64,000 nucleotides of DNA, from positions 124,001-188,000 of the forward strand of contig NZ_JAGGPJ010000027.1 of NCBI RefSeq assembly GCF_018613875.1. Reading direction: 5' to 3'. Below are positions 28,728-46,715 of this stretch, piece after piece (the first letter of the stretch is position 1; the number at the start of each line of letters is the position of its first letter). The position numbers and the translations under genes were made by a program. The notes under the pieces are model-generated. The model had not been told where the DNA came from and made no database searches. It saw nothing but the letters and a program-made list of their open reading frames with translations. The DNA is from Arthrobacter sp. ISL-28 (lineage in GTDB: Bacteria > Actinomycetota > Actinomycetes > Actinomycetales > Micrococcaceae).

Positions 28728-28796
28728 CCCAAGAACATCCGGCAAGAAAGCGCATTCTCTTCAACAAGTATCCGCACCTCAAAGAAACGGAAGCAA

Positions 28797-28940
28797 ATGA
28801 CATCCATGACCAAGCACGGAATCGCACTTGTCCGCGGGCTGACGGCGCGCATCAAGGGAACGGACGCTCCCATCCGGCCGCCCCAAAGTGGTGATCGCGT
28901 CCACGGCGATCATGCCGAACGTGGAGACGTTCCCGGGTGA
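28797..28940 (+). pseudogene. 5' part of a Tad-locus pilin-like gene, split by an integrative element
   Basis: ATG at 28797 opens a 47-codon frame (MTSMTKHGIALVRGLTARIKG... ending AERGDVPG) whose TGA stop is made from the TG core plus the element's first base. The missing remainder lies at 46704-46812. Joining the halves at TG gives GDVPG-W-VMITLM in frame, an 83-residue small protein with a basic N-terminus and one hydrophobic helix, as expected for the small pilin-like protein between tadC and tadE. In the present state only the non-hydrophobic part can be made, so the protein should be non-functional. Confidence 0.8.
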
Positions 28941-28958
28941 GGGGTGATATTCCGATAC
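28925..28958. other. attL of the serine-integrase element
   Basis: Host sequence GGAGACGTTCCCGGG ends at 28937, the TG core is 28938-28939, then 6 bp (AGGGGT), then the arm GATATTCCGATAC at 28946-28958. The same arm occurs inverted exactly 6 bp inside the right TG core. Confidence 0.82.
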
Positions 28959-29066
28959 CGATGTCTTCGAGCCGTTGAAAATGTTCGTAATCAGGCGGCG
29001 GTCCGAGCCTCCGAGACTGCGGCGAGCTACCAAACCGCTTTCAGTTTGAATAGGTAAGCTTCATTC

Positions 29067-30287
29067 ATGGGGGACCACCAGACTATAGGGCTAACGCAGC
29101 GGCAAACGCATCGAGAAAGAATTCTTTCAGTCTTGTCCGAAGAGCCATCGGGCAGCCTTCGGAGGGCTCACGCATTGCAACGGCTCGCCGCGGTGTTTGC
29201 TTGGTCAGATGAAGACAACAAGCCTCGAGAAACCCGACCGTGGGAGACGAAGTGGGAGAACCGGGCTAGTTTCGAGCGAGCAGAGATGGTTCGCGCAGGA
29301 TTGCTGGAAGAGGACGAGTACGGGCAATGGACGCTCTCGGCTGCCGGCTGGGAGCAAGCACGTGAGGTACGCCGCAGGAACCGGCCTGACCACGGTGACG
29401 AATTCATGCGGCGAGAAGCGATGTGGGAGGCTCTGCTCGCTGCTGGGGGTCCTGGTGACGTCAGCGCAGGACTGATCCGCGACCTAGGCATCTACGCGGG
29501 AGCCCGAGGCATCTACGTGAATCAGGACCGGACTAAATCCACTGTGGCGCCGAACGGGATAGCGTTGTCTTTCCTCCATACGGGGAGAAGTTTCTCGGAC
29601 GAGCTGACTGAAGACGGTGTCCTGTACCGCTATCCCAAGACGAATCGCCCAGGCGACGACAAGTTTGAAGTGGCTGCTGCGAAAGCAGCATACCGGTCGG
29701 GCTTGCCCGTGTTCGTGGTAGGGCCGGGAAGTACTTTGACCAAACGTATCGTGTACAGAGGGTATGTCGAACGTTTTGACGACGAACTTGGCGCCTTGCT
29801 CATTACTTTCACTCAGGATGAACTGCCGCCCCCGCCGCCTGAGCGTGAGGACGAGAATCCTTTCACCCTGACGGACGAGGCTTCCAAGCGTACCTACAGT
29901 CTGAGACAGAATCGGCCCAACCAAGGTCGATTCGCGATGAAGGTCTTCCAGCGTTACGGCACCGCCTGCGCAGTCTGCGGGCTCGACGTCTATGGCCTCG
30001 TGCAGGCCGCCCATCTTCGGGCCAAGAAGCGAAGCGGTAGTGACGATGAACGTAATGGTCTACCGTTGTGCGCGAACCACCACCTCGCGTTCGACCGGCT
30101 CCTCTGGGCGATAGAACCAGGGACGCTTAAGCTAGCGAGCCGCCACAGCGGCCCTGACCTCGGTGAGCTCGGAATTTCGAAGCCTGATCTGACACACCTG
30201 AAACGTAAACCGCACGATGGATCGGTCGCTGACAGTTGGCAGGAGTGGAAAAAGGGGCAACCCGATCTTCTCGATACGGGGACGTAG
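29067..30287 (+). CDS. HNH endonuclease with N-terminal winged-helix and sensor-like middle domain
   Basis: A 406-residue probable modification-dependent nuclease. Residues 1-110 resemble an Mrr-type winged helix (SLRRAHALQRLAAVF...GQWTLSAAGWEQAREV). The middle (about 125-260) has RSFSDELTEDGVLYRYPKT, the type of fold seen in SRA-like or ASCH-like base readers of McrA-type enzymes. The HNH domain at 300-345 has CAVCG, AAHLRAKK and LCANHHLAFD, giving the two cysteines and catalytic histidines. TAAGCT at 29055-29060 ends 6 nt before the ATG. First cargo gene of the element. A restriction role is inferred. Confidence 0.8.
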   Translation: MGDHQTIGLTQRQTHRERILSVLSEEPSGSLRRAHALQRLAAVFAWSDEDNKPRETRPWETKWENRASFERAEMVRAGLLEEDEYGQWTLSAAGWEQAREVRRRNRPDHGDEFMRREAMWEALLAAGGPGDVSAGLIRDLGIYAGARGIYVNQDRTKSTVAPNGIALSFLHTGRSFSDELTEDGVLYRYPKTNRPGDDKFEVAAAKAAYRSGLPVFVVGPGSTLTKRIVYRGYVERFDDELGALLITFTQDELPPPPPEREDENPFTLTDEASKRTYSLRQNRPNQGRFAMKVFQRYGTACAVCGLDVYGLVQAAHLRAKKRSGSDDERNGLPLCANHHLAFDRLLWAIEPGTLKLASRHSGPDLGELGISKPDLTHLKRKPHDGSVADSWQEWKKGQPDLLDTGT

Positions 30288-30458
30288 AGCACCGATGCCC
30301 AAATGAACAAGTTGTAGTCGGCCGGCAGGAAATTCCATGACGCGCGCGACGGACTATTACCAGCTTGGTGCTACTCAGGGTGGGTCGACTTCGTCGACGT
30401 CGATGTGGATGGCGATCAGGTTGCCCTTGATAAAATGCGGTAACTGATTGGGGACATC

Positions 30459-31625
30459 GTGACCGAGGTACTTCCACCGCTCAACGCCGCCATACTCGTC
30501 GGAAATGGCCTGAGTATCGCTTTCAACCCCGAGTTGAATCTTGCAGCGATCACGAAAGAAATGATCGCGCGGATGGAGAGTGCGACCGAAGATGGGGACA
30601 AGGTCGTCCATGCCATGAATGAGATCGCGCGGCGAGCGGTCTCGGAAGGCGAGGTTACAGATGAGGACTTTGAAAAACTGGTCGGCGCATTTGATTCCCA
30701 AGTCTTGACCCTCGACGAACTCAGCAAGTTAGCGGATCTTGTGGCGCGCGAGGACACTGACCTGCGTAAGTCGATTCAGGACGTAGCGGCTTTCAGCCAG
30801 AAGGTCCGAGATATGGGTATTAGCTACGTGCTGGAAGTCATCATGGAACGTTCACGTGGAGACTGGACACTTCATGACGAGATGCATCAACTTGTCGAAG
30901 CCATCATCGACAGCTTCGGTGGCAACATCCATATCGGCAACCTCAACTACGACACCCTCCTACTTTCGGCATTAAAGGCTGTGGATGCACCGATGTCCGA
31001 CATGGGCCACGGCTACTCTCAGTTCTCGATCAAGGTCAAGGATGAGGACGACCCGGACGACGAGGGCGTGCCCTATATAGTCACTCGCCTGCGGACGGTG
31101 GCAAATTTTCCGGCTGGTCCCAGGTACCGAGTAAAGCTTCTGCATCTGCATGGATCTCTCACGTATTGGCACAGCGTCGAAAGCGATCTTCATTTCAAGG
31201 CGCCGGTGGACTTGCTTCGAAATCACTCCATGTGGGCGGGACTGCGCGACAGTGAACCCAAGTTTCGGCCGACCGTGGTTCTAGCAAACCAGAGGGACAA
31301 GGCCCATCACGTCGGGCGCTACCCGTTCAGATTGGCATATGAAACATTTCAGAAGGGGCTTCACGAGTCCCAACACTGGATGGTTATTGGTTACTCCTTT
31401 AGGGATGCGTGTGTGAACGATATCCTGCGCAACGAGTTCATCCGGCGGAAGGTGAAACCTCAGGTGCTCGTGTCCACATATGGCGATTTCCCTACTACAG
31501 AGGAAGTGGAACTGGCATTTGGATGGGGTGCAGAAGACGAGAGTTCCAGTCACTGGTTGACCATCAACCGTGAAGGGGCCAGGGGACTTCAAGAATCTGT
31601 GGATTGGGCTGTTTTCACTTCTTAG
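30459..31625 (+). CDS. SIR2-like domain protein, probable NAD-depleting defence effector
   Basis: A 388-residue stand-alone SIR2-like protein. Landmarks: ILVGNGLSIAF at 11-21 (NAD-binding glycine/serine loop), GNLNYDTLL near 160 (Asn-Asp pair), KLLHLHGSLTYW near 227 (catalytic His), and WMVIGYSFRD near 306, the pattern of anti-phage SIR2 proteins rather than deacetylases (no zinc cysteines are seen). Such proteins typically hydrolyse NAD+ on infection. GTG at 30459 is chosen as the residue just before the SIR2 core. It converges with a small membrane protein gene that could be a partner; no separate sensor domain is evident. Confidence 0.78.
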   Translation: MTEVLPPLNAAILVGNGLSIAFNPELNLAAITKEMIARMESATEDGDKVVHAMNEIARRAVSEGEVTDEDFEKLVGAFDSQVLTLDELSKLADLVAREDTDLRKSIQDVAAFSQKVRDMGISYVLEVIMERSRGDWTLHDEMHQLVEAIIDSFGGNIHIGNLNYDTLLLSALKAVDAPMSDMGHGYSQFSIKVKDEDDPDDEGVPYIVTRLRTVANFPAGPRYRVKLLHLHGSLTYWHSVESDLHFKAPVDLLRNHSMWAGLRDSEPKFRPTVVLANQRDKAHHVGRYPFRLAYETFQKGLHESQHWMVIGYSFRDACVNDILRNEFIRRKVKPQVLVSTYGDFPTTEEVELAFGWGAEDESSSHWLTINREGARGLQESVDWAVFTS

Positions 31626-31834
31626 AGGTCCGACCTTCATTCGGTGAAGCTGACGGCGGCGACGTGCTCATCTCAGGGCCAGCAGCAAGGCACTTCCAGA
31701 CCTGCCGAAACGGTCCTTCAGGCGTGATCCAAATCCTTTGCGGATCGGGGCGACTGCGAGGCAGCAGAGGCCCGGGGCGATGCGGCAATGGGCGGACCGG
31801 AGGACAGACGCGTTCAAGTCCCTCAGCTGGGGCG

Positions 31835-32290
31835 TTAGTCCTTAACGCCGAGGTCGCGCCGGACGGCTTCAACAAAGCTGTCGTAATTTTTGACGAGAAT
31901 GTCATGAGCCGCCTGAGCGTCTGCCGTTCTCTTCTCGGATTGCTGTTGGCTCAGTATCGAGAGGCATGCTTGTATGTCGCTCATCACCGTTCGCATCGCC
32001 TTCTTGACGCGGTTTGGGCCAAGTACATTGACGGGCGTTATGAAGCTCGAATCCTCCGGTACATCTCTGGCCGGCTTTTCCTGGATCAGTGCTGCCAGGG
32101 CATCTACGGCAGCAGAAAGGCTGCCTACCGCTGCAACGTACTCTTTTTGCTTCTCGTTACGCAGCCACTGCCAATGCTCAGTTGCCTTCCCAAGCGTTGA
32201 CCCCACCCAACTACCGATAAGTGCGAAAAGGCCCGTTCCCAGCGGTACCAGCAGCCACCACCATTGCCCTTGCCTGATCAAGTCGTCCAT
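31835..32290 (-). CDS. Small membrane-anchored helical protein (copy 1)
   Basis: About 151 residues: one N-terminal transmembrane helix (WWWLLVPLGTGLFALIGSWVGS) followed by a cytosolic helical domain beginning EHWQWLRNEKQKEYVAAV. The gene at 34583 has the same layout and the same TEHxQWLRNEKxKxY signature. Function is unknown; such proteins are frequent beside actinobacterial defence genes. The ATG at 32290 is preferred because TACGTT ends 6 nt before it; a GTG 15 bp further upstream is the alternative. It converges with the SIR2 gene. Confidence 0.68.
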   Translation of the reverse strand: MDDLIRQGQWWWLLVPLGTGLFALIGSWVGSTLGKATEHWQWLRNEKQKEYVAAVGSLSAAVDALAALIQEKPARDVPEDSSFITPVNVLGPNRVKKAMRTVMSDIQACLSILSQQQSEKRTADAQAAHDILVKNYDSFVEAVRRDLGVKD

Positions 32291-32452
32291 GGAGCAAACG
32301 TACACAATGAAGCGGTGCGGGCCTGCCAGGTCTTAACTGGCGCATTTTCCTCGAAAAGCGCGGATCGAGGCCAACAATGCGGGAAGGCGTTCCGTCAGCG
32401 CCCTTTACGGAGAGGGCAGCGGCAAAGGATGGGAAGGGTCTACCGACGTGAA

Positions 32453-33166
32453 TCAGCTCCGAAATTGGAACGCCCACCGCTCCACTTCATCTGCGCCGAC
32501 GGTCCTGGTGGCCATCGAGAGCTCCTTCGCCCAAGCGCCCATCACATACAAGGCCGCTTCGTAGGTGCTGAACGTGTAGTTGGTCGAGTTTGGTGTAAAA
32601 ACAGGCCACGGAGTGTAGTGATGCAGTGTGGCCAGGACACGGTTGTCGACAATCAAGCACGGATGGCTGAGATGTCCCTCGCCAGCGAAATAGAGATACT
32701 TGGTGAAGAAGTTCGGTCCCAGGGATCCGATAGCGTTCGCCCGGGGCTGGAATGTCAGGAATGCCTGTTCTGGGTCAGTGATCGACAGTTTTGCTGCTTT
32801 TTGTAGCAGACAACCAATCTTGTCCGGTTTCTTCTCCACGGAATGAATGCGGCGTGTTGTGTTCCGATGATTCGATCCTGTGCCCCAAGCTAGTGAGTGC
32901 CAAAGTAGGCGAAAGGCGCTCCTTCCACTTTCGTCGTCGCGAGCATCGGCGGCCATGGAGAAGAGGCGGCCGCGGTCTATCAAGCCCTCATCAGTTTCTC
33001 CGTTGGTGCCAACGACCGGACTTCCGGGTAGGTGCGCAATTCTCTGATTCCACCAGCCAAGGTTCAGCTTGAACCCATGATTTTCTATCGCATTCATCCG
33101 GGAGTTGCTTTCTACCCACTCCCGAAGCGATAAAGGGGCTGGCGGTATTGTACGAGGCTCGTTCAT
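32453..33166 (-). CDS. OGG-like HhH-GPD DNA glycosylase fold protein
   Basis: A 237-residue protein whose centre reads SLGPNFFTKYLYFAGEG then LSHPCLIVDNRVLATL. This matches the helix-hairpin-helix/GPD signature of OGG-type glycosylases: K156 sits where the catalytic lysine of OGG1 lies and D174 where its catalytic aspartate lies. The rest is poorly recognisable. Activity on damaged or phage-modified bases is inference. ATG at 33166 is chosen over one 21 bp upstream because TATCGT ends 6 nt before it. It lies among defence genes, which favours an anti-phage rather than housekeeping repair role. Confidence 0.65.
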   Translation of the reverse strand: MNEPRTIPPAPLSLREWVESNSRMNAIENHGFKLNLGWWNQRIAHLPGSPVVGTNGETDEGLIDRGRLFSMAADARDDESGRSAFRLLWHSLAWGTGSNHRNTTRRIHSVEKKPDKIGCLLQKAAKLSITDPEQAFLTFQPRANAIGSLGPNFFTKYLYFAGEGHLSHPCLIVDNRVLATLHHYTPWPVFTPNSTNYTFSTYEAALYVMGAWAKELSMATRTVGADEVERWAFQFRS

Positions 33167-33414
33167 TGCATCACGATAGCTGACCATGGGGGTGCCGTCT
33201 GAGTGAAGGCTGGGCCGCCCTTAAAAGCCTAAATGGCCCTCCTAAGCTCCTGATTTAGCAGACAGGGTAAATATCCCCAGTGAGTGACGTTAGGCCTTCA
33301 AAAGGGCTTTTACGGCCGGATGCGACCGTTTGGCGGCACTGAGCGCCGCTATTTTCAGCATTATGCACCGCCGCGTCCAGGAGGAGATCGCGGGGATAAA
33401 CAAGACGGCCATGC

Positions 33415-34452
33415 CTATCGGCTGTCAGCAGGGCGTCCAGCCTGTCCGCCTTCAGTAAGCGGGTGTCTATACGCCGTCGGAACCAGTGTGGAGCGGCTTG
33501 GCACCCAGCTCGACCAGTATCGCCAACGTCCGCCTGAGCAATTGAGGCCTGTATCCAAGTCGATCTGGTCGATCACTATCAGCATGGTTCTCTGGTCTTC
33601 GGCGTGTCGCACTTCGCCCTCAGTTATGTCTACTGCCAGGCGCTCTGTAGTGCTGCCCTTGACCTCGATGTGAGTGATTTCATTTCCCCGGATCACCGTT
33701 ACATCCCACGCCTCGGTCGCGCCTACATCCGCGGTGGCAAAGCCGAGAGACTCAAAGTGATCAATCACCTGCTTCACGGCATACTGCTCGACAGCCTTGC
33801 GGCGATCCGGATCCGGCTGGCGGCCGTAGCCTGATCGACCACTTTTGGAGGTACTTGGGCGAGTCCTAGGCGTTGGCTCGTCAGCCGGTACATCAACGGC
33901 TACCTGTCCGAGTTCCTTTAGGTCCGGCATGGCATCGACGAGGGCCGCAGGAAACTTGACTAGATAAGCCTGTGCCGCGCGTATGGCGCGCTTATCCGAG
34001 ATGGCGAAGGGGAAATACAGTGGTTTCTTACCGTGAACGGCGATGAGTTCGCTGCGAATACTTCTAATAGTCGGTTCTAAGGCCCGCACAGCGGAAAGGG
34101 GTATCGGTGCCTTCAACTCGCGATACCCCTGAAGCATTGCTTCCCAAGCGTCCTCCTGTCCATGCGCAGGCCGCTGCCGCCCGTAACTACCTCTGCTTTG
34201 CCATTCTAGAGACGAGGCTACGGCGCTCGAGCTGCAGTGGGAGTATCCAGTTAATGCTGGACCGTGATTTTTTCGCCAGTGCAGAACGATGTCGCCTGGC
34301 CTGACATAGCGCACCGTCTCGTAAGACCATTCCTCCAGCCCTGCATCGTTGACCTGGGGAGCAATCAGATTTTCACCGATAAGGTCCCGATTGGAGATCT
34401 CCATCCAATAACGCTCGCGGCTATCAGCCTTCCACCATTCGTTTATCGCCAT
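33415..34452 (-). CDS. EVE-like / DUF3883 PD-(D/E)XK protein, putative modification-dependent restriction enzyme
   Basis: About 345 residues. The N-terminal domain (INEWWKADSRERYWMEISNR then VRPGDIVLHWRK) resembles EVE/YTH-like readers of modified bases. After a Ser/Arg/Pro linker the C-terminal domain has the DUF3883 pattern: RKAVEQYAVKQVIDHFESLG, EAWDVTVIRGNEITHIEVKGST, with the Asp and the ExK of a PD-(D/E)XK nuclease site. Together these suggest recognition of modified DNA and cleavage, a type IV restriction logic. The ATG at 34452 is chosen because TATGCT ends 7 nt before it; in-frame starts at 34464 and 34530 exist. Confidence 0.7.
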   Translation of the reverse strand: MAINEWWKADSRERYWMEISNRDLIGENLIAPQVNDAGLEEWSYETVRYVRPGDIVLHWRKNHGPALTGYSHCSSSAVASSLEWQSRGSYGRQRPAHGQEDAWEAMLQGYRELKAPIPLSAVRALEPTIRSIRSELIAVHGKKPLYFPFAISDKRAIRAAQAYLVKFPAALVDAMPDLKELGQVAVDVPADEPTPRTRPSTSKSGRSGYGRQPDPDRRKAVEQYAVKQVIDHFESLGFATADVGATEAWDVTVIRGNEITHIEVKGSTTERLAVDITEGEVRHAEDQRTMLIVIDQIDLDTGLNCSGGRWRYWSSWVPSRSTLVPTAYRHPLTEGGQAGRPADSR

Positions 34453-34582
34453 GCTTGTCAGCATAGAACGCGCAGTTAGCCGGTGGGCCGAAGGTGCTCT
34501 TGTGGCGAAGCCCGGCGGCAAGTCCCACACAACTGCAAGCGGTCATGTGATATGCCGCACCGCTACGTCAATCTAGTTGGGT

Positions 34583-35179
34583 TCAGTAGCGCTGTTCAGT
34601 CCCTCGCATCTCAGAAATGGACGGGCCCGGGGGATGTAAGTGACTCGAACCTAACTCACGAGGCGGATGCCGTCTCTTGGCGCGGATATGTTTGACGGCG
34701 GACCAAACATCAGCGAATCGGGTGGGGCCGTCAGAAACGCTTAGATCTCGGCGAATTTTCTCGTGAAGTCGTTTAGTGAGGCGTGATATCTCTTGTCTTA
34801 CTTCGGACTCCGTGCCGAAGTACTGCCATTTACGTCCCGGTTGCAATCCCCGACGCATTAATGAGAGTTGATACTGAAGGCTTTCGATCTGGATTGCTTC
34901 CATGTGAACGGTTAGCGGCGCTAGAAGCGCAACCCGATCCAAAACCAGAAGGCGCTCGATTCGCGCCGTTTCCTCGGACGCTGATTCCAGCGGGGCCCGG
35001 GAATCTCTGATGATGGCATTAAAACTGTGGCAGACTTCGAGAAAATCTTCATAGGCCTTCATCTTCTCGTTGCGAAGCCACTGCTTGTGTTCTGTAGTCC
35101 GTGTAAAAAATGCGCCTAGAAGGCTCCCGGACAAGGCCGCAGCAGCAGCTATCAGGGCGATCTGAAGGTCTTGAGGCAT
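34583..35179 (-). CDS. Small membrane-anchored helical protein (copy 2)
   Basis: A 198-residue protein with an N-terminal transmembrane helix (IALIAAAAALSGSLLGAFF) and a long cytosolic helical region beginning TEHKQWLRNEKMKAYEDFLEV, the same signature as the gene at 31835. The last 40 residues are basic and Pro-rich. TAAGTT ends 6 nt before the ATG. It is read in the same direction as the DUF3883 gene downstream, 131 bp away, but each seems to have its own promoter. Function unknown. Confidence 0.68.
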   Translation of the reverse strand: MPQDLQIALIAAAAALSGSLLGAFFTRTTEHKQWLRNEKMKAYEDFLEVCHSFNAIIRDSRAPLESASEETARIERLLVLDRVALLAPLTVHMEAIQIESLQYQLSLMRRGLQPGRKWQYFGTESEVRQEISRLTKRLHEKIRRDLSVSDGPTRFADVWSAVKHIRAKRRHPPRELGSSHLHPPGPSISEMRGTEQRY

Positions 35180-35321
35180 GGCTACAACTTACTCAGGGCA
35201 GAGACCTCGAGGGAAAATGGGCTGGTCCTGCCGGGACATAGATGTGCTTCAGAGCCGCCTCGTCTCGGGAACGGGTTGTAAGCGTCGCTTTCAACAACGT
35301 TCTCTTTGCCCGCGAGAGGAT

Positions 35322-36716
35322 CTATGCCGCGTCGGACGAGTCTTCAGCTTCATCTGCGCTATTCTCCGATACGGCTGCCTTGCTGCCCAGACGCACTGCC
35401 AGCCATTCCGATGTTGCGACTTCCAATTGGTGCGCCTGGTTGCGAAGCGAGTCCGCACGGGATCTGGCCTCTTGAACGATAGCAGCTAAACGTTCTTGCT
35501 CCGGCAGGTCGGGAACGGGGATAGGAAGGGCTTTGACGTCCGAACTGTTGATCGTCGCGAGGTTCGTCGTTTGCTTGGCACAGTCATCAAAGTACCAACG
35601 TCCGGCAGGACCATGCATGTATGCAAAAACGAATTCTGGCAGCAACCGCTTACGGTTTACTCGAACGCGCAGGACGTGGTTCTGATGAACACAACCTTCT
35701 ATCTCGCCGTTCCAGATTGCAGGTCTACCGACGAGCTCGCGACTATTGCCTTCGCATAGGAGGAGGTCGCCTGGTTCAAGTTCGTACTGCTTCGCGTTTT
35801 GCGGGGGCACATCAATTTGCTTCATGACATCTAGGTCTAGGAATCCGTCCTGAACATTGGCCACGCGCAAGTATGGTCTGGCATTGGCACCAGGACGATT
35901 GGTTGGGCTCTTCGTAACACCGTAAGCCACTTCGGACAGCCCCTTTTGCCCGAGTGGGTGCAATTGTCCATCGGAAGTAATTTCCTGCACCGCACCCTGC
36001 TTGGCTGCCATCCCCTTCCGAACGGACCAGCGGGAGATCTTGCTTCTTTGTACGTCGAAGGGCCCACGAATGGTTTCGAAGTCTGGAACACGAATGCCGA
36101 GAAATTCCAGCATCTCAGCTCCCGCCTTCGTTATGAGGGGCAGGGCTTCGTTTCTCAGATCAAGGGCTTCTCGATTACGGGCGGCAAGTTCTTTGAGCAA
36201 GGCGTCCTGTTCAGGAAGCCCTGGCACAGGAAGCAATAGCTTCTCAAACTCCTCTGCTGGGAGTCTCTTTCGCCCACTGTGACCGATCACTTGCGCATTG
36301 ATTTGGGCGCGGAAGACAGAAGTTCTACAGAGGAGGCGCATGTAGGCGGGACGCACCAGTCCAGGATTAGAAAGGTCGTAGATGGGGTATTCAGACGAAA
36401 AGGCTAGGTCCTGCTCGTCATCACCGAGCACACCGATCGCGCCGTTACGGACATCGATCCGGCTGAAGACGACATCGCCGGGGCGTGCCCGAAACGTGCT
36501 GCCCTTGCTCGTCCTCTTCGCATTTCTTAGAGAGATCTGTCCCCCAAAATCGATGCTACCCAGTGGAATGTTGCCGGCCGCAGGCTCTATGCGCCGCGTA
36601 GCTAGTTCACTCACGGGGCGAAGCATGTGGACTACTGTGGGCGCCCATGACGGAACATCATGGGACTTGACGTCCCAGCGTGCGAGGCCTGCGCGCCATA
36701 CTGACAAAACTCGCAT
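35322..36716 (-). CDS. hsdS: Type I-like restriction-modification specificity subunit
   Basis: A 464-residue S subunit with two target-recognition domains, each followed by a conserved helix: LLPVPGLPEQDALLKELAARNREAL near 170 and IPVPDLPEQERLAAIVQEA near 420. It reads the DNA site for the methylase/nuclease encoded immediately upstream. The ATG shares its A with the last base of the upstream TGA stop (TGATG), so translation is coupled; the longer open frame upstream belongs to the overlap with that gene. No separate HsdR gene is present nearby. Confidence 0.88.
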   Translation of the reverse strand: MRVLSVWRAGLARWDVKSHDVPSWAPTVVHMLRPVSELATRRIEPAAGNIPLGSIDFGGQISLRNAKRTSKGSTFRARPGDVVFSRIDVRNGAIGVLGDDEQDLAFSSEYPIYDLSNPGLVRPAYMRLLCRTSVFRAQINAQVIGHSGRKRLPAEEFEKLLLPVPGLPEQDALLKELAARNREALDLRNEALPLITKAGAEMLEFLGIRVPDFETIRGPFDVQRSKISRWSVRKGMAAKQGAVQEITSDGQLHPLGQKGLSEVAYGVTKSPTNRPGANARPYLRVANVQDGFLDLDVMKQIDVPPQNAKQYELEPGDLLLCEGNSRELVGRPAIWNGEIEGCVHQNHVLRVRVNRKRLLPEFVFAYMHGPAGRWYFDDCAKQTTNLATINSSDVKALPIPVPDLPEQERLAAIVQEARSRADSLRNQAHQLEVATSEWLAVRLGSKAAVSENSADEAEDSSDAA

Positions 36717-39133
36717 CAGACCACCGCGCCCGAGGAGGCTGTAAGGGACAGGGAATTGCGGCTCCATTCCCGGAAGGCCTCAAGAACACTGGGTAGTTCA
36801 TTGGGCACGGAATCGCCGGTGACGCCTGTGGACGTGATGCCGGCATGCTCAACTTCCGCCATGAAGATTGGGTAGTCGTCCAGCTGCTTGGCAGCAGCGG
36901 TTATGCGCTCCGCCTTTTCTTTCTCCAACTCCCGAATAATCGTGTCCCGGGTCTTTGTAGCTGCCTTCACTGCCGCACGCTCATCCTTGTTGAGGAGGCT
37001 GTTCCATGTTCGTCGTGCAGCGTTGAGACGGGCTGTGTCAGAGCGATCGAGATACGCGTCTGCCAGGGCTTGCTGGGCGTTAAGGGCGTCTCCGGCGTTG
37101 ATGCCATGCGACTCTAGCGTTTCGCAGAGCTGTTCGGTTGCCTTCGTGCGCAATGGTTCAAAGACTGTTTGTTCGAGTTCTTCAGAAGCTGTAATAAGAG
37201 CTTGTTTCCAAGCCACTCGATCCTCTGCCGTGAATCGCTCGAGCAGGACAATCGAGGTCTTGACGGTCGCTTTGGCGCTCGCGAATACCTCCTGGGGCAG
37301 CGAGATGACTGCCCGCAGCCGTGCAGTGCCCTCTATGTAATCCCGGAACCATTCAAGGCTGGGATTATTGAGGAGTCCGTCCGGCAAGACAATGGCCACA
37401 CGACCTCCTGGCTTGAGAAGGCGGATGGCACGCTCGACGAACAGAGATTCTGTGGGACGGGAATTCCTCACCTGGGAAGTTGCAGTTTCGCCTCCGACTG
37501 GGTTTCGACCGATATCGAATAGCTGCAGGATGGGCCACTTCTCACGTTCAGCGATTGCGAGTTGAGCGCGACTTGCTGCCCAATGTTCTCCATACCTTGC
37601 TGCATTGATTGCGGCATCGTCCTCGGACTCCACCATGCGCGTCTGGGTGGTATCCCCGGTCAGCTGGTCTGCTGTAACCGTTGCCCCGAATGGGGGATTT
37701 GTCAGTACGACATCGAATCTATTCTCAAGGAGGCCTCCGGTATCGAGCAGTCCATCGTGAAAATAGATGCCGCCGTGTCCGTCGCCATGCATGATCATGT
37801 TCATTTTGCTTGTGCGCGCAGCGCGCGCTTCCGCGTCCGATCCGAAAATGCACTCCCGTGAAAGACGTCCCAAACGGGAAGTCGAGTCTTCCATATCCAG
37901 GCTCGCATTCAGAGCATGCTTATTCTCATCGATAGCGTCGGCAAGCCGCGCGTCGTCCCAGCTTTCGTGCGCCGCCTGGGCTTGCAACTTTGCAATAGCT
38001 GCATCTTTCTCATCTTGGACCGAACGCTCTATCTGGTCCCGGACGTATTCGAAGGTCCTTATGAGGAAGCCACCTGTTCCGCTTGCCGGGTCGCATACGA
38101 GCTCGTCTTCGCGCGGGTCGACTAACCCGACCATAAAGTCCACGATTGGACGGGGGGTAAAGAACTGGCCAAGTTCTCCACGGAATGTCTGTCCAAGGAA
38201 TTGCTCGAAGGCAATGCCTTTGATGTCGTCACTGGTGGCTGAAAGGTTGAATCGCTCGAGCTTTTCGACGAGGCGTCGGAACGTGGCGTAGCTGATGTTC
38301 AGACGATCGCCCTTCTCGAAGAGTCGGTCGCTCTTCAACCCCTTCTTGGTGTCATCGAAGAGATCTGTCATGACTTCGTCGGCACGACTCCGTCGAACCT
38401 TCGCGTACCTGTCCATATAGTCGCGCGTGAAGCGATCGCCCTCTGCACCTCGTTCGAAGTACATCTTGATGAACAGAACCTTTGAGATCTCGTCAAACGC
38501 TGCGCCTGGATCCAACTTATGGTTATCGCGCAGGATGGCATGGCACTCGTGAAGGAGCTTCCGAAATTCGTCTCGCGAAAAAGCTTTCGTGGCCGCCCGG
38601 ATAGCCTCTAGGCGTTTGGCGTCCGAGAGGTCTTCGGCGTGGGGCGCGTCCTCTATATCGACTCGCGTGCCTGGTGCACCAGGAACTAGGCGAAACGCTC
38701 GGGTTTCCTTCTCGTTGTGTGCGACCATGAATTCGCAGCCAACGGCTCTCGCATAGCTTTCACCCTGGGAATAATCGGCGGGGACGATCGTGACGTGCTC
38801 TGCTTTAGTTTCAACGACGAGCACGTAGTCGCGGTTTGCAGTAAGCGCATCTTCATCCTTGGCAACTACGATATCGGCCTTCGGTGACCCGTGGCCGTGC
38901 ATGGTGCGCTTTTCCTGCGCCATCTGCTTCAGTGAATATCCGTAGCGTGAGTGCAGCCTGTGGATGAACCTCTGCCGAACAACCTCCTCCGGTTTCGCCT
39001 GGAGCCATTTACCTCGGAGCGGCGCCCATACAAAGCCGTTGACTATCTGGATGACGTCAGCCCCTTCGCCGAAGTGTGATGTTGGGGGGCTCGTCGGCTT
39101 GGCAGTCGAACCGGCTGCGCTCTTTTTCGGCAT
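36716..39133 (-). CDS. hsdM: N6-adenine methylase fused to an N-terminal nuclease-like domain
   Basis: An 805-residue protein. Residues about 40-150 form a type I R-subunit N-terminal-like domain with KADIVVAKDED and VLVVETKAEHV, giving the D and ExK of a PD-(D/E)XK site. An HsdM helical domain follows, then the methylase with DPASGTGGFLIRTFEY (SAM motif I) and VVLTNPPFGA (NPPF). The C-terminus is helical. With the S subunit this may both methylate and cut, as BcgI-type IIB/IIG enzymes do, since no helicase subunit is seen. Strong AAGGAG site 4 nt before the ATG. Confidence 0.87.
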   Translation of the reverse strand: MPKKSAAGSTAKPTSPPTSHFGEGADVIQIVNGFVWAPLRGKWLQAKPEEVVRQRFIHRLHSRYGYSLKQMAQEKRTMHGHGSPKADIVVAKDEDALTANRDYVLVVETKAEHVTIVPADYSQGESYARAVGCEFMVAHNEKETRAFRLVPGAPGTRVDIEDAPHAEDLSDAKRLEAIRAATKAFSRDEFRKLLHECHAILRDNHKLDPGAAFDEISKVLFIKMYFERGAEGDRFTRDYMDRYAKVRRSRADEVMTDLFDDTKKGLKSDRLFEKGDRLNISYATFRRLVEKLERFNLSATSDDIKGIAFEQFLGQTFRGELGQFFTPRPIVDFMVGLVDPREDELVCDPASGTGGFLIRTFEYVRDQIERSVQDEKDAAIAKLQAQAAHESWDDARLADAIDENKHALNASLDMEDSTSRLGRLSRECIFGSDAEARAARTSKMNMIMHGDGHGGIYFHDGLLDTGGLLENRFDVVLTNPPFGATVTADQLTGDTTQTRMVESEDDAAINAARYGEHWAASRAQLAIAEREKWPILQLFDIGRNPVGGETATSQVRNSRPTESLFVERAIRLLKPGGRVAIVLPDGLLNNPSLEWFRDYIEGTARLRAVISLPQEVFASAKATVKTSIVLLERFTAEDRVAWKQALITASEELEQTVFEPLRTKATEQLCETLESHGINAGDALNAQQALADAYLDRSDTARLNAARRTWNSLLNKDERAAVKAATKTRDTIIRELEKEKAERITAAAKQLDDYPIFMAEVEHAGITSTGVTGDSVPNELPSVLEAFREWSRNSLSLTASSGAVV

Positions 39134-39545
39134 TTGTCTCCTTGTGAAATTTCCAGCTCATGTGTGTCGCAGGCCAGCCGCTGAAGCCGCTTGGCAGCTG
39201 CCCCCCGCTGGCTGCCAGGGAAGCGATAGCCCCAGGAACCAGCATTCTTGTGGTTGTGGGCGGCGCAGTCGTTGGGGTTGCCGGCCAGTTCGGCGACAAA
39301 CCTATCCGTAATGCGTCATGCACATGAGTCCGACTACCAACAATAGCGAACCAGACAGGGCAGGGTTTGGTTGCCCACGCGGGATAGGCAGCTCTTGCAG
39401 TGAACCGGAGGGCATCTCCGTCGAGACTGTGGCCCCACAGTTCGTCAACAAGCCAACCGCGCTGCTCCACCGTCCTCACTATCTTCACCTCCAGCTCGTG
39501 GACATGCGAAAGCCTAAGCGTAGGGCCCGACAGTCCTTGCTCCAC
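39057..39545 (-). CDS. Doubtful hypothetical ORF upstream of the methylase
   Basis: A 162-codon frame that overlaps the first 77 bp of the methylase gene. The middle (ELEVKIVRTVEQRGWLVDELWGHSLDGDALRF) looks protein-like, but the tail has biased composition and there is no recognised domain or clear ribosome-binding site. It may be a decayed gene. It occupies most of the 578-bp stretch 39134-39711, in which I see no better candidate. Confidence 0.25.
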   Translation of the reverse strand: MEQGLSGPTLRLSHVHELEVKIVRTVEQRGWLVDELWGHSLDGDALRFTARAAYPAWATKPCPVWFAIVGSRTHVHDALRIGLSPNWPATPTTAPPTTTRMLVPGAIASLAASGGQLPSGFSGWPATHMSWKFHKETNAEKERSRFDCQADEPPNITLRRRG

Positions 39546-39711
39546 GCTTTGCGGTTACCAGCATTCTTGTAATGCCGATGGACTTGCAGCCGGTCTCGAG
39601 AAACAGGAGATAAGCGCAGCCGTAGCCAGCAATGATGCGGTAATCGGGATGGCGATGAGGCGCAGACGAAGGTCTTCCAACAGGAATCAGCATCAGACTA
39701 GTCTCGGCGCT

Positions 39712-40320
39712 TCAACGGGAGTAAGGATTTGAGCTCCACTTAGCAAACCAGGCGTCTTGGTCCGCGCTGTCTTGCCTAACTCTTTCCCAATAGGGAGGGA
39801 CGTGCTCCGTTATTTTGTGGACTCGGCCACGCTCATCGCGTTTCCATCGCTGCCCCATAGTGTCGGTGAAACTTACGCAGGGAATGCCAAAAAGCGCATC
39901 TGAGCCCTCATCAGGTTCGCTGGGCGGTCCATATGGGTGCCGACGATGAAGGATTCGTCCCTCAACGGTCATGCCCGGGTTCACTATCTGGAGATCAAAT
40001 GGGCTTTGGTCGCTTCTTTCGGTGGCAGCCATAGCAACAATGACGTCGTAGACCGGTTGGCTCCCGCCATTCTTAACCTTGACCGTAAGGTCGAAAGAAG
40101 TTTCCGCTCCTAAATCCTCATCTTCCTCGTTTGGATCAAAGCGTCGAACGCCACAAAACCACGCTGACACTTGGTCGGCCGAAATGCGTATCGCTCGTTC
40201 TTCCGCCTCCTGTCTCGCCCGTCGCTCGTGTGCAAGAAGCCGCATAGCGACCAGCAGCGCACCTACCGTGCCGAGTGCGCTAAAGATAGCCGCCCATGTG
40301 TTCATCAATGACATGTCCAT
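39712..40320 (-). CDS. Membrane-anchored hypothetical protein with beta-rich domain
   Basis: A 202-residue protein: one N-terminal membrane helix (WAAIFSALGTVGALLVAMRLLAH), a basic/acidic coiled segment, then a beta-rich domain with FDLTVKVKNGGSQPVYDVIVAM and PGMTVEGRI, resembling domains that carry the phrase of internal-facing immunoglobulin-like folds. The gene at 59505, in the other island, has the same layout (helix plus YEISVHNATSHPLRMVEVKY). Function unknown. Several in-frame ATGs lie within the first six codons. Confidence 0.62.
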   Translation of the reverse strand: MDMSLMNTWAAIFSALGTVGALLVAMRLLAHERRARQEAEERAIRISADQVSAWFCGVRRFDPNEEDEDLGAETSFDLTVKVKNGGSQPVYDVIVAMAATERSDQSPFDLQIVNPGMTVEGRILHRRHPYGPPSEPDEGSDALFGIPCVSFTDTMGQRWKRDERGRVHKITEHVPPYWERVRQDSADQDAWFAKWSSNPYSR

Positions 40321-40581
40321 GGGCTATGTTCTCGTCTTCGCGGATCGTGACAGCTTAGGGACACGGTCCAATGGAATAGAGTCACCGACACGTCAGCCGT
40401 AGTTGTCGACTCGAAGTCTTGGGCGTCGCAAAAACGATCGTTTCTTAAGACACTTGTGCAAGCTCGCCTTGCCTGCCTCACATCCGCCTGTTTCCGGCCT
40501 TTTTCTAATCTTGAAAACCCGTCTCAAAACCAGTAGTCTCAAAACACTATTTGATACGGCTTTTCGAGATAGGGGAGATCG

Positions 40582-41133
40582 GTGGCAGTCATCGGTTACG
40601 CAAGGGTTTCAACTGCCGAGCAGAATCTGGAGTTGCAAACCGCAGCTCTGAAAGACGCGGGCGCAATCCGGATCTACGCTGACAAGGGTGTAAGCGGGAG
40701 CGCCGTCGAGCGACCGGAACTTACAAAACTTCTTGATCGTCTTGACGAAGGTGATGTCCTCACCGTTTGGAAACTGGACAGGCTTGGCCGCAATACACGT
40801 CACGTTCTGACGGTTGTCGATGAACTGCGGAACCGGGGTGTCAGTTTCAGGTCCCTCACGGAGGGCCTGGACACTACTGGACCAATGGGTACCGCCATGC
40901 TCACCATCATGGCCGCCTTCGCCCAACTCGAAAGGGACACGATCATCGAGCGAACGCGCGCAGGGCTGAAGGAGGCTGCCAAAAACAACAGGCACGGTGG
41001 ACGTCCACGAAAAGTGGATGGCGCTGCAGCGGTGAGAGCCGCAGATCTCAAAGCCAAAGGTCTCAGCGCGAACGACATCGGGAAGATGCTGGGGGTCTCG
41101 AGGGCAACGGTTTACCGCTATCTTGCGAGCTAG
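40582..41133 (+). CDS. Small serine recombinase (resolvase/invertase family)
   Basis: A 183-residue Tn3/Hin-type recombinase. Catalytic serine S10 in IGYARVSTAEQN, the LDRLGRNTRH and AQLERDTIIERTRAGL regions, and a C-terminal helix-turn-helix (GLSANDIGKMLGVSRATVYRYL). It could resolve multimers of the element's circular form or be the remnant of a transposon. GTG start with GGGGAGA upstream. It lacks the zinc ribbon of the large integrase, so it is not the integrase of the element. Confidence 0.93.
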   Translation: MAVIGYARVSTAEQNLELQTAALKDAGAIRIYADKGVSGSAVERPELTKLLDRLDEGDVLTVWKLDRLGRNTRHVLTVVDELRNRGVSFRSLTEGLDTTGPMGTAMLTIMAAFAQLERDTIIERTRAGLKEAAKNNRHGGRPRKVDGAAAVRAADLKAKGLSANDIGKMLGVSRATVYRYLAS

Positions 41134-41294
41134 TGCTGATGGTGAGGGCCCGTGTGATGTTTGTGGGACGCGGGCCTTTGCAAAGTCAGTAAACTCCAAT
41201 CATCGCCTAGGACGGCTGGCCGCTCCTCAAATGCGATGAGCCCCAATCTAGCTCCGGACGTAATGATCAACGCGTCGAAGGAGTCAACGGTCGT

Positions 41295-41480
41295 TTAGCT
41301 TCGAGCCGGCTTCTTCGGTTCCCGCTCCTCGACGCCCTTCCAACGGCCCGGTGTCGACTTCGACGCCAGGTAGTTCGCATCGCCGTCGTACTTGTCGTAG
41401 CGATCGGTTCGATCGTTGTACTGCTGGTATCGGTCTTTCTGCTGACCGATCCGGTAGCCTTCACCGGTGTTCTTCCCCAA
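41295..41480 (-). CDS. Small hypothetical protein downstream of the resolvase
   Basis: A 61-residue frame starting at TTG 41480 with GGGAG about 8 nt upstream: LGKNTGEGYRIGQQKDRYQQ..., rich in Tyr, Asp and Lys, then KYDGDANYLASKSTPGRWKGVEERE. I have the impression of a short conserved family found near mobile genes, but cannot name it. The open frame extends further upstream without a better start. The gene converges with the resolvase. Confidence 0.5.
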   Translation of the reverse strand: MGKNTGEGYRIGQQKDRYQQYNDRTDRYDKYDGDANYLASKSTPGRWKGVEEREPKKPARS

Positions 41481-42047
41481 CGTGCATCTCCCGAAATCGT
41501 GTCGTATGTTCGCGGGAGAAGTATATCTGGCCGACCCTGTTGGTCCATCCTCGGGTTCCGGAACGCTCGCAACTACATGACCCGATCGCTGATCGGAGGC
41601 GGTGACTTCGGTCAAGAGCTCGTGACGTAATGGACCGAAGCAACTAGTCCTGACGAGAGGGCTTTCAGACTTCTACTTACAAAAATTTGACGAACCGGCG
41701 GCGCGCGGCGCGGTTATCTAGTACTCGATGGTTCCTACGATTTACAAGATTTCCGCAAGTGCACGCCCATGAAGGGAACGGGGGTACGCTCGCGCAAGCG
41801 CCTAATTGAAGACCTGCTGCGGGGGGGCAGCTTTGGAAACTTTCGGGGTGCATTTTCGCCGGGTAGGACAGGCTCCTTCGCCGGGTTGTTGACTGAAGTC
41901 TTAATATGACCAATTGTCAACCTGTGGGGCCATGAATCTCGCCCCAGGATCTGAGCCTTTGGGGGAGTGACTCACAGAACCTCCTATTCATGGAACCTTC
42001 CCCGCTGGTCGAATCCAAAGGAGTCAGTACTAGGAAGTTACACCCTT
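41481..42047. other. 567 bp without a supported gene
   Basis: Only short frames with unlikely composition occur on either strand. The segment is less GC-rich than the host DNA and contains no tRNA, array or obvious promoter that I can identify. It separates the resolvase module from the replication module. Confidence 0.5.
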
Positions 42048-42083
42048 GGAAGTAGCAGCCCTATAACTAGGGCTGCTACTTCC
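42048..42083. terminator. Perfect 16-bp hairpin at the end of the next gene
   Basis: GGAAGTAGCAGCCCTA at 42048-42063 pairs with its complement at 42068-42083 around a TAAC loop. The minus-strand gene at 42083 ends in its base. There is no T-run, so it may act as a Rho-dependent or weak terminator, or stabilise the message. Confidence 0.6.
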
Positions 42084-42562
42084 TAACTAGTGAGTTTGTC
42101 TTCTCTAAGTAGTCCCGATGGTGATTGCTCGCTCTGGCTGGCTGAAGGGCCGACCATCTCACGGCTGTAGTATCGGGAAACTCGTCGGACTTCATGATTA
42201 ATCAACAGGTCATCCATGACATAGGCCCAAGTTCCCCCTCCGCCGTGGAATTCTCCTCCGCATGAGCAGGTGCAGTCATCCCTGACAGCACCCTGGCAGG
42301 AGTGGGTGCACACTTGCGTGACGGAGTACTCCCTTATAACCCACACTCCGCCGTACAAGGTTTGAAGGGCTGCCGCCAGATTTTCCCGGTGGCGCTTGGC
42401 GAGCATCCACCAGACCTTCCCGGCGTTGTCCACGGTCCACTCGAGGTGGACTCTACTTCCCAGGACTTCTTTCAGGAATTCCCTCGTCCACTTCCCGCCG
42501 TCCGGAAAGTTCACATAGAGCTTGGTCCTATCGATAAAACTGTAAATCGTTGCTTGAGACAT
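42083..42562 (-). CDS. Cys/Gly-rich hypothetical protein
   Basis: A 159-residue protein of unknown function. The centre reads CTHSCQGAVRDDCTCSCGGEFHGGG, a cluster of cysteines and a histidine that could bind zinc; similar CxCGGxxHG motifs occur in small proteins of actinobacterial phages and plasmids. The N-terminal half (SFIDRTKLYVNFPDGGKW) looks like a compact alpha/beta domain. ATG at 42562 has AAGGAA about 8 nt upstream. Next to the putative replication region. Confidence 0.65.
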   Translation of the reverse strand: MSQATIYSFIDRTKLYVNFPDGGKWTREFLKEVLGSRVHLEWTVDNAGKVWWMLAKRHRENLAAALQTLYGGVWVIREYSVTQVCTHSCQGAVRDDCTCSCGGEFHGGGGTWAYVMDDLLINHEVRRVSRYYSREMVGPSASQSEQSPSGLLREDKLTS

Positions 42563-42699
42563 GTTCCGATTCCTTCGGATAGATCTGATACTGCATGGAA
42601 TCGTCGCTTCGTCTTTTCGTCGTTATGTTGAGATTGCTGAGTTTGTTCAGCATCCTGTTTGCCTCTTTGTGTACTCCTTCCTAGGGCTTTGGTCTGTTC

Positions 42700-42862
42700 G
42701 CCAGGTCTGCATGCAGGTCAATAGGCTGCACAGACCTGCCTAAACCTGCACAGACCTGCTCTATGGCTGCAACAACTTGCACAGCACGCTATTTGCGCCT
42801 TCACCTGCACGCCTGCACACCCCCCCGTAGGGGGTGCAGTGCAGGCAGGCAGCAGATGATTG
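42700..42862. other. Iteron-like repeats, candidate replication origin
   Basis: CTGCACAGACCTGC is repeated exactly at 42726-42739 and 42746-42759 (20-bp period). Related forms flank it: GGTCTGCATGCAGGTC near 42703, TTGCACAGCACG near 42789, CACCTGCACGCCTGCAC near 42811. A hairpin with C7/G5 arms lies at about 42814-42842 just past the RepA-like stop and may end that transcript. Phased repeats beside a replication ATPase gene suggest an oriV for the excised circle. Confidence 0.5.
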
Positions 42863-42863
42863 G

Positions 42864-44372: not shown

Positions 44373-44478
44373 GTCCAGTAATGCTTTCTATCAAATTTTC
44401 TGCTCATTCGAGCCTTTCGTTTGTTTTGAATTTATTTTTTCCTTGGCGCTTTGGCCGGCTGAGGGTGGTGCTTAAGAC

Positions 44479-44646
44479 CTACATAGCTTGTTCCTTTTCT
44501 AGTTGGGCGATGGCACTCTGGACCTGACGCTTCGTCTCTTCGGTCTCAGCGAGAGCGGCCTGTAGGCGCTGAATCTTCTGCTGAGTTCTGGTGAGCTTGA
44601 ACCTTGCTCGGGTAAGGGGTGTTCGCTCGTACTTGCCTTTTCCCAT
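44479..44646 (-). CDS. 55-residue coiled-coil protein
   Basis: ATG at 44646 with GAGGAAGG about 7 nt upstream opens MGKGKYERTPLTRARF, then a continuous predicted coiled coil (QQKIQRLQAALAETEETKRQVQSAIAQLEKEQ) to the TAG at 44479. It lies 106 bp upstream of the RepA-like gene and reads the same way. A role in regulation or replication is possible; a short basic-plus-coiled-coil protein could also be a recombination directionality factor, but nothing in the sequence proves this. Confidence 0.65.
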   Translation of the reverse strand: MGKGKYERTPLTRARFKLTRTQQKIQRLQAALAETEETKRQVQSAIAQLEKEQAM

Positions 44647-45109: not shown

Positions 45110-45148
45110 AAAAAAAGAACCGCGCCGGCTCGGGGCCGACGCGGCTCT
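45110..45148 (-). terminator. Rho-independent terminator of the integrase gene
   Basis: On the minus strand GAGCCGCGTCGGC, a short CCCGAG loop region and GCCGGCGCGGTTC form a stem with single mismatches, followed by seven T residues (A-run at 45110-45116 on the plus strand). It starts about 20 bp after the integrase stop. Confidence 0.85.
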
Positions 45149-45169
45149 CTGAGGTTGCGGAAACATCCC

Positions 45170-46672: not shown

Positions 46673-46679
46673 GCAGGCA

Positions 46680-46715
46680 AGAGTATCGGAATATCTCGAC
46701 GTGGGTCATGATTAC
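46680..46715. other. attR of the serine-integrase element, overlapping the int promoter
   Basis: Arm GTATCGGAATATC at 46683-46695, 6 bp (TCGACG), TG core at 46702-46703, then host GGTCATGATTACC. The integrase -10 (TACTCT on the minus strand, 46680-46685) overlaps the arm, and its -35 position falls on host DNA beyond the core. Confidence 0.8.

What the first reader, a model, noticed from the sequence alone, without database searches (positions are those of the whole stretch)
32453..33166. OGG-type glycosylase fold in a defence island with both catalytic residues kept
SLGPNFFTKYLYF and CLIVDNRVLATL align with the HhH-GPD block, with K156 and D174 in the catalytic positions. A glycosylase in this context may remove modified bases from phage DNA, giving abasic sites. 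It could cooperate with the nearby nucleases that may read modified DNA.
Basis: partly seen in the sequence, partly recalled or inferred. Interest (0 to 1): 0.62.

Follow-up and report, generated by a model that had tools for sequence, protein, structure and literature searches.

The report
Actinobacterial defence-island DNA glycosylase of OGG type
A mobile DNA element in an Arthrobacter-like bacterium carries a gene that looks like a DNA-repair enzyme which clips out damaged bases, and its relatives often sit among virus-defence genes, so it may clip modified bases out of invading viral DNA, although this is untested.

Summary
ORF 32453-33187 (minus, 244 aa) is a strong Pfam PF21790 'OGG' match (165 bits). 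Its AlphaFold2 model is confident (pLDDT 94); the closest solved structures are 8-oxoguanine glycosylases of subfamily OGG2 (Z 9.8-10.9), and a divergent homologue repeats this. The C-terminal lysine with which OGG2 enzymes sense 8-oxoguanine is absent.
The gene is cargo of a 17.8-kb element (28940-46701) with a serine integrase, mapped against empty sites. The family is patchy, occurs on plasmids, abuts the type IV enzyme GmrSD in four genomes (three tree positions) and lies in DISARM-like or methylase gene runs; 63 of 79 loci show none of these.
Best reading: a defence glycosylase that excises a modified base from invading DNA, like Brig1/Brig3 in logic but with an HhH fold. Activity and substrate are inferred. 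Co-operation with this window's own neighbours is not supported. New variant of a known kind.

The parts
32453..33187 (-). OGG-like DNA glycosylase, 244 aa (alternative start at 33166); K163, D181, E236, F240 predicted active-site residues
   Evidence: PF21790 165 bits; AF2 pLDDT 94.3; OGG2 structures Z 9.8-10.9; conservation
28940..46701 (.). 17.8-kb integrative element that carries the gene, between tadC and prfB
   Evidence: Empty sites of three same-genus genomes: L213 aligns to 28324-28939 and 46702-47216 with a 2-base overlap; all three stop at 46702 on the right, the left end is exact in L213 only; tadC-prfB gap 19.8 kb against 1.7-2.2 kb in 27 of 30 genomes with both genes
45170..46672 (-). 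large serine recombinase, probable integrase, about 30 bases from the right end of the element
   Evidence: Resolvase + Recombinase + Zn_ribbon_recom domains, the last just under its cut-off
42864..44372 (-). AAA_25 ATPase with a weak helix-turn-helix end, probable replication or maintenance gene of the element
40582..41133 (+). small serine resolvase
   Evidence: PF00239 165 bits
36716..39133 (-). fused HSDR_N nuclease and N6 adenine methylase (BcgI-like arrangement; that name is recalled)
35322..36767 (-). restriction specificity subunit (HsdS-like)
34583..35179 (-). 198-aa protein with an N-terminal hydrophobic segment, no family over its cut-off
33415..34530 (-). NOV_C nuclease-like protein with a sub-threshold EVE-like N-terminal half
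   Evidence: NOV_C E 3.4e-6; EVE E 0.026, under its cut-off
31835..32305 (-). 156-aa protein with an N-terminal hydrophobic segment, no family
30459..31625 (+). SIR2-like protein of the defence kind
   Evidence: SIR2_2 just under its cut-off; PADLOC SIR2 models, best E 8.9e-9
29067..30287 (+). HNH_2 nuclease with Mrr_N domain

Best explanation
It is a defence DNA glycosylase of helix-hairpin-helix (OGG2-like) architecture. The enzyme flips a modified base of invading DNA into a pocket formed by E236 and F240. D181 and K163 break the bond between base and sugar, leaving an abasic site that blocks replication or is cut by host or partner nucleases. Host DNA is spared because it lacks the modified base. 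Computed: predicted fold, family-wide conservation of four pocket and catalytic positions, mobility, defence neighbourhoods of part of the family. Inferred: catalysis, the abasic outcome, the substrate and any phage phenotype.
For: PF21790 165 bits. Two confident models, pLDDT 94.3 and 94.6, whose first four structural matches are entries of three OGG2 enzymes (Z 9.8-10.9 and 9.0-10.2; next rows 7.8 and 6.7). The aligned end residues place E236/F240 (E224/F228 in the second model) on hOGG1 Q315/F319 and MjaOGG2 D194/W198, the base-contacting pair described in PMC3397491. K 29 of 31, D 31 of 31, E 30 of 31 rows. Patchy: 20 of 149 relatives and 16 of 396 phylum genomes, the window's own included in both. 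Mobile: 17.8-kb element and 24 of 72,556 plasmid records; not found in phage records or by one motif scan of viral contigs. Defence context: within 10 kb, GmrSD in 8 loci (abutting in 4), a DrmD-like helicase in 9, Type ISP enzymes in 7 of 79 loci, against 0 of 40 control stretches with the same queries; genome-wide GmrSD is rare, 79 places in 148 genomes. The four GmrSD-abutting copies fall in three tree positions. Precedent: Brig1 and Brig3 show that base excision defends against phages.
Against: No activity or phage data exist. Sequence profiles do not link the family to Nth or MutY, and Foldseek alone gives no significant hit. The Z-scores lie in a range that the tool warns can mean only a common arrangement for helical proteins. 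Two of 31 rows lack the lysine, one of them (L010) beside the GmrSD-linked pair L079/L105 in the tree. 63 of 79 loci have none of the five restriction/DISARM clusters, and of 122 immediate flank genes scanned only a few are restriction genes (N6_Mtase 3, GmrSD_C 3, HNH_2 3, Mrr_cat 2). In this window the gene is not tightly coupled to its neighbours. PADLOC has no model for it.
Confidence: 0.58

Rival explanations
1. A restriction glycosylase: it excises a normal base within a sequence unless a partner methylase has modified that site (the R.PabI logic, recalled), working with a neighbouring methylase.
For: In L101 an N6 methylase ORF overlaps the glycosylase ORF by 4 bases and DrmD/DrmMI follow; in L079 and L105 a type IIG methylase lies upstream; Type ISP enzymes within 10 kb in 7 loci. 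The window holds a methylase and specificity subunit on the same strand. Base-excision restriction enzymes exist (PMC10273834: start of abstract, term search).
Against: No single methylase type is constant, and most loci have none of the methylase clusters counted. The window's methylase has its own nuclease domain. The four plasmid regions looked at have no methylase annotated next to the gene.
Confidence: 0.12
2. An ordinary 8-oxoguanine or oxidative-damage repair enzyme that happens to ride on mobile elements.
For: Closest folds are 8-oxoguanine glycosylases; catalytic and pocket residues kept; the Pfam family bears that name.
Against: The OGG2 C-terminal sensor lysine is missing: tails after F240 are 2 to 76 residues long, and 1 of 67 rows ends in lysine. 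Patchy presence and defence neighbours do not suit housekeeping repair.
Confidence: 0.14
3. Not a glycosylase: a base-modifying or base-reading relative of the HhH fold, such as the phage amino-acid:DNA transferases, or a DNA-binding regulator.
For: Phage PaMx11 gp46 glycinyltransferase is matched at Z 7.0 and a mycobacteriophage amino acid:DNA transferase is the top, non-significant viral hit (E 0.25).
Against: The Lys and Asp of glycosylases are both kept in nearly all rows and the OGG2 structures rank above it; it is not among the 50 listed for the second model.
Confidence: 0.1

Closest known systems
OGG2 8-oxoguanine DNA glycosylases (MjaOGG2, SsoOGG2, TmaOGG2)
   Same: Closest fold, aligned from about residue 17 to the end; Lys/Asp pair; acid plus aromatic base-pocket pair at equivalent places; no OGG1 A-domain
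   Different: 12-14% identity in the structural alignments; no C-terminal sensor lysine; two short strands near the N-terminus; defence and mobile-element context
Brig1 and Brig3 anti-phage DNA glycosylases (PMC11078745, PMC13160076)
   Same: Predicted logic: excise a modified base from phage DNA to leave abasic sites; defence islands; Brig1 homologues mostly in actinobacteria
   Different: Brig1/Brig3 are described as uracil/AAG-type glycosylases, Brig3 with a mixed alpha/beta core; this one is almost all helical. Substrate here unknown
Pfam PF21790 'OGG'
   Same: Member: 165 bits over nearly the whole profile
   Different: The Pfam entry line says only 'putative OGG-like'; it states no defence role
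GmrSD type IV restriction enzymes
   Same: Genomic partner of the family in several genomes; cleaves modified phage DNA (PMC4619093 abstract)
   Different: Unrelated protein; not present beside the window gene
Qng1/DUF2419 queuosine-5'-monophosphate salvage enzyme
   Same: Weak structural match in both models (Z 6.1-6.6); binds a 7-deazaguanine nucleotide (entry titles) and splits its base off (recalled)
   Different: Acts on a nucleotide in salvage, not on DNA; Z is in the range of chance arrangements

Membership tests
Pfam PF21790 OGG | Profile score above the curated cut-off over the domain | tested here: met
   165.1 bits against 27, profile positions 2-201 of 201
OGG2 8-oxoguanine glycosylase | OGG2 fold without A-domain | tested here: met
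   Four entries of three OGG2 enzymes are the best matches of two models
OGG2 8-oxoguanine glycosylase | Catalytic Lys and Asp | tested here: met
   K 29 of 31, D 31 of 31 rows; 18 residues apart in the window protein. Superposition on the catalytic atoms was not seen, as the tools print no residue pairs
OGG2 8-oxoguanine glycosylase | Strictly conserved C-terminal lysine whose carboxylate senses N7-H of 8-oxoG (PMC3397491) | tested here: not met
   Window protein ends QFRS four residues after F240; 1 of 67 rows ends in lysine and tails vary from 2 to 76 residues
OGG1 | N-terminal A-domain | tested here: not met
   Model residue 16 pairs with hOGG1 115 in nearly all OGG1 rows, leaving 15 residues before it; one row (2NOZ) starts at hOGG1 31
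HhH-GPD superfamily (PF00730) by sequence | Detectable profile match | tested here: not met
   No PF00730 in Pfam scan at E 1; hhalign to Nth and MutY not significant, with low-diversity templates. Structure comparison says otherwise
Brig1/Brig3 defence glycosylases | UDG/AAG-type fold | tested here: inconclusive
   Searches list OGG-type and other HhH structures, which does not exclude one; Brig sequences were not compared
Brig1/Brig3 defence glycosylases | Excision of a modified phage base and phage protection | not testable with these tools
   Needs protein and phages
Restriction glycosylase (R.PabI kind) | Sequence-specific excision blocked by a cognate methylase | not testable with these tools
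   Methylase neighbours vary

The most novel reading that the evidence does not exclude
PF21790 is a family of defence glycosylases aimed at hypermodified guanine, above all 7-deazaguanines (dPreQ0 and its kin) of actinobacteriophages: the acid E236 would read the guanine face as the acids of OGG2 and AGOG do, while the N7-H sensor of 8-oxoG enzymes has been dropped because a 7-deaza base has no N7. In some genomes it would work as a unit with GmrSD and a DISARM-like helicase and methylase. Clues: Mycobacterium phage Rosebush carries dPreQ0 at about 28% of its G (PMC6884629), and Qng1, which handles a 7-deazaguanine nucleotide, is a weak structural match of both models.
Probability: 0.12. Interest if true: 0.82.

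Novelty: new variant of a known kind. Interest (0 to 1): 0.56.

Why it matters
Base excision as phage defence is known from enzymes of the uracil-glycosylase kind. If this family does the same with the helix-hairpin-helix fold, a second glycosylase fold has been recruited for immunity. The family is widespread in Actinomycetota and on plasmids, yet the window protein matches no PADLOC or NCBIfam model, and the plasmid copies looked at are annotated as hypothetical proteins. The repeated junction with GmrSD would allow a direct test of whether glycosylases and type IV nucleases act together on modified DNA.

Tried and rejected
Family searches: NCBIfam and PADLOC give nothing for the protein; PHROGs only a match at E 0.34 over 8 residues; no PDB sequence relative; no phage record; no viral-contig relative. 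Foldseek alone: best PDB hit hOGG1 at E 0.97, best viral hit E 0.25, so the fold claim rests on VIA-align and on its repeat with a second homologue. Brig1 family: considered first because of the defence-glycosylase literature; its papers describe a UDG/AAG-type enzyme, so membership was not claimed. No UDG or AAG structure appeared in the lists; that absence proves nothing. Apparent long fusions: in L028, L068, L079 and L105 the N-terminal extension has the wrong codon-position G+C, so it is probably upstream read-through; L027 and L104 are unclear. A conserved partner from the window: tblastn of ten neighbouring window proteins against the 141 other loci held then found only HNH, HSDR_N-methylase and resolvase matches. 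Direct repeats of 12 bases at the element ends: none; inverted repeats at the junctions: none. The kinase cluster near 14 loci was not counted as defence: one member matches PADLOC PD-T4-6 models, another is a penicillin-binding-protein kinase.

Control and counting limits: of 150 flanking genes called in 79 loci, 122 were scanned, to stay under the residue limit; the 28 left out include the GmrSD neighbours of L079 and L105. PADLOC at E 1e-30 rang for 71 families, against 1 family (mad3, 3 genes) for all 123 control genes, but the number of flank genes with a hit is not printed. The 0 of 40 control used queries taken from glycosylase loci and is biased towards them; the control stretches come from 11 genomes that also have a family match. 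The genome-wide counts are independent. The DrmD model is promiscuous (139 of 148 genomes); 6 places score above 1000 bits. Cluster 3 includes DrmD fragments (131 and 256 aa in L095 and L086). The 79 loci were chosen with the motifs [GA]ADEVERW and GP[NA]FFTKxL, so invariance of those letters in A3 is partly by construction; A1 comes from profile hits. Eight profile hits (L008, L018, L019, L020, L023, L037, L038, L039: fragments, stops or weak) were left out of A1.

Full report
What is there. The ORF at 32453-33187 (minus strand, 244 aa; 237 aa from the MNEP start at 33166) matches Pfam PF21790, 'Putative 8-oxoguanine DNA glycosylase OGG-like protein', at 165 bits over nearly the whole profile. 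No NCBIfam or PADLOC model matches it. The window lies in a 5.0-Mb genome with one such gene. Two genomes that the tool labels 'same genus' hold copies identical, in the compared region, to those of Arthrobacter sp. MAHUQ-56 and Pseudarthrobacter sulfonivorans, so the host is an Arthrobacter-like actinomycete.

Fold and active site. An AlphaFold2 model built on 66 of the 79 loci plus the window protein has mean pLDDT 94.3. VIA-align puts four entries of three OGG2 enzymes first: 3KNT Z 10.9 over 170 residues at 3.4 A, 3N0U 10.9, 3FHG 10.1, 3FHF 9.8, followed by an endonuclease III at 7.8. A second model, of the divergent L105 homologue (26% identical to the window protein in that alignment), gives the same four at 10.2, 9.9, 9.3 and 9.0, the next at 6.7. 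The tool warns that values under about 13 can be trivial for helical proteins; that one subfamily fills the first four places twice argues against it. Foldseek alone is not significant, and profile comparison with Nth and MutY fails. In the window model, residue 244 pairs with hOGG1 323, MjaOGG2 202 and CacOGG1 286; if the last helix has no gap, F240 falls on F319, W198 and F282 and E236 on Q315, D194 and Q278, which PMC3397491 describes as the residues that stack on and face the flipped base (found passages). The second model gives the same mapping for E224 and F228. In 31 rows chosen by profile K is kept in 29, D in 31, E in 30 and F in the 27 that reach it; in the 67-row alignment E is invariant and residue 240 is aromatic in 66.

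What is missing. OGG2 enzymes tell 8-oxoG from G through the carboxylate of a strictly conserved C-terminal lysine (PMC3397491). The window protein ends QFRS, four residues after F240; the 67 tails run from 2 to 76 residues without a common end, and one ends in lysine. OGG1's A-domain is absent too. So the catalytic pair looks preserved while the known 8-oxoG sensors of OGG1 and OGG2 are not, and the protein is not filed as an OGG2 enzyme.

Mobility. Between tadC (ends 28727) and prfB (starts 48505) the window has 19.8 kb. Of 31 same-genus genomes searched, 30 have both genes, and 27 of the 30 have 1.7-2.2 kb between them (distances worked out by hand from the listed places). The other two besides the window's own, G004 and G029, have 13.5 and 11.6 kb with tadC split near codon 285-290, so the region is used more than once. 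Three empty sites align to the window on both sides: in L213 neighbouring bases correspond to 28939 and 46702, and all three stop at 46702; on the left L214 and L215 stop earlier, at 28832 and 28727. The element is therefore 28940-46701, 17,762 bases by L213, ending about 30 bases from a large serine recombinase (45170-46672). G+C is 56.5% at 28.9-41.2 kb against 62.8% before it and 61.0% after it, the latter figure including the element's last 5.5 kb. On plasmids the gene occurs in 24 of 72,556 records, 11 of them predicted conjugative. It was not found in 50,697 phage records or by one motif scan of viral contigs.

Distribution and company. The family is patchy: 20 of 149 relatives (19 over the cut-off) and 16 of 396 genomes drawn across the phylum, the window's own counted in both. 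In the 79 loci, restriction or DISARM genes recur within 10 kb: DrmD-like helicase in 9, GmrSD in 8, Type ISP enzymes in 7, DrmMI in 4, type IIG in 3 (4; an overlap rule dropped L105); 16 loci have at least one of the five and 63 have none (cluster identities checked on one to four members each). With the same queries at 150 bits the count is 15 of 79, against 0 of 40 control stretches of 20 kb. Independent base rates: GmrSD_N has 79 places in 50 of 148 class genomes and Type_ISP_C 26 places in 21 of 148; taking about 4.7 Mb a genome (my estimate), the 1.48 Mb of the 79 loci should hold about 0.2 and 0.06, against 8 and 7 seen; related loci are not independent, so this is rough. Four copies abut or overlap GmrSD: L065 (glycosylase 10004-10783, GmrSD from 10786), L079 (DrmD-like helicase, type IIG methylase, a DUF2510 gene, glycosylase, GmrSD), L105 (the same order without the DUF2510 gene, with a PLD-like gene behind) and L080 (GmrSD to 9674, glycosylase from 9689). 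In L105 an ATG of the glycosylase begins on the last base of the methylase gene; in L101 an N6 methylase ORF overlaps the glycosylase ORF by 4 bases and DrmD and DrmMI follow (DrmMI there by cluster only). On a tree of 110 copies these four lie in three places: L079 with L105 (hosts of different families, so the run has moved), L080 and L065. McrBC lies just upstream in L076 and an HNH nuclease in L084. Against this, ordinary genes are common in the immediate flanks.

The window's own neighbours. The same strand carries an HSDR_N-methylase with a specificity subunit, a NOV_C protein with a weak EVE-like half and two small proteins with hydrophobic N-termini; the other strand an HNH/Mrr_N protein and a SIR2-like protein. 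None was found as a constant companion of the glycosylase elsewhere, and gaps of 227 and 147 nt separate the gene from its neighbours. So the island looks like a collection of defence genes, and the case for a unit with these nucleases is not made.

Mechanism and novelty. The best-supported account is a glycosylase that removes a modified base from invading DNA and leaves abasic sites, as Brig1 and Brig3 do with a different fold. Searches of the paper library for this family found nothing: 'PF21790' and 'OGG fold protein' have no paper, and combinations of glycosylase, HhH-GPD and defence terms list Brig papers and base-excision restriction enzymes but, in the listings seen, no OGG-like defence enzyme. 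The library lacks most subscription papers. The substrate is open. An acid at position 236 fits a guanine-like face, and loss of the N7-H sensor fits a base read in another way; 7-deazaguanines of actinobacteriophages are the boldest candidate, with the weak Qng1 match as a hint.

Noticed in passing
28727-48505: The tadC-prfB interval takes inserts more than once: two other same-genus genomes (G004, G029) have 13.5 and 11.6 kb there with tadC split near codon 285-290.
   Followed up: partly
31835-32305 and 34583-35179: Two small proteins with a hydrophobic N-terminus share a motif of the kind TEHxQWLRNEK and belong to no family; they stand on either side of the glycosylase/NOV_C pair.
   Followed up: no
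L043:9983-10726 and L008: The copy on Arthrobacter NtRoot plasmids is in two pieces, annotated as two hypothetical proteins in five records; a sixth, near-identical match (NZ_CP089294.1) has no annotation, and L008 reads one TGA inside. The gene seems to decay there.
   Followed up: no
L044:7534-10699: In the closest named relative (Arthrobacter sp. SF27) the ORF as called overlaps by 44 bases the end of an AAA_13 gene that matches PADLOC PDC-S06 candidates.
   Followed up: partly
L041, L042, L051, L063: Four Rhodococcus loci share many genes around the glycosylase; in three the next big gene is grouped with protein kinases although annotated on the plasmids as an ABC transporter substrate-binding protein.
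   Followed up: no
L113:7817-8872 and the mycobacterial clade L098, L102, L107, L108, L113: A mycobacterial clade of the family; L113 has whiA nearby and its cluster has members in four loci, perhaps a fixed chromosomal copy.
   Followed up: no
L079:460-12554 and L105:1966-12560: DrmD-like helicase, type IIG methylase, glycosylase and GmrSD in one run, in an Isoptericola and a Sphaerisporangium; looks like a DISARM-like variant with a glycosylase.
   Followed up: partly
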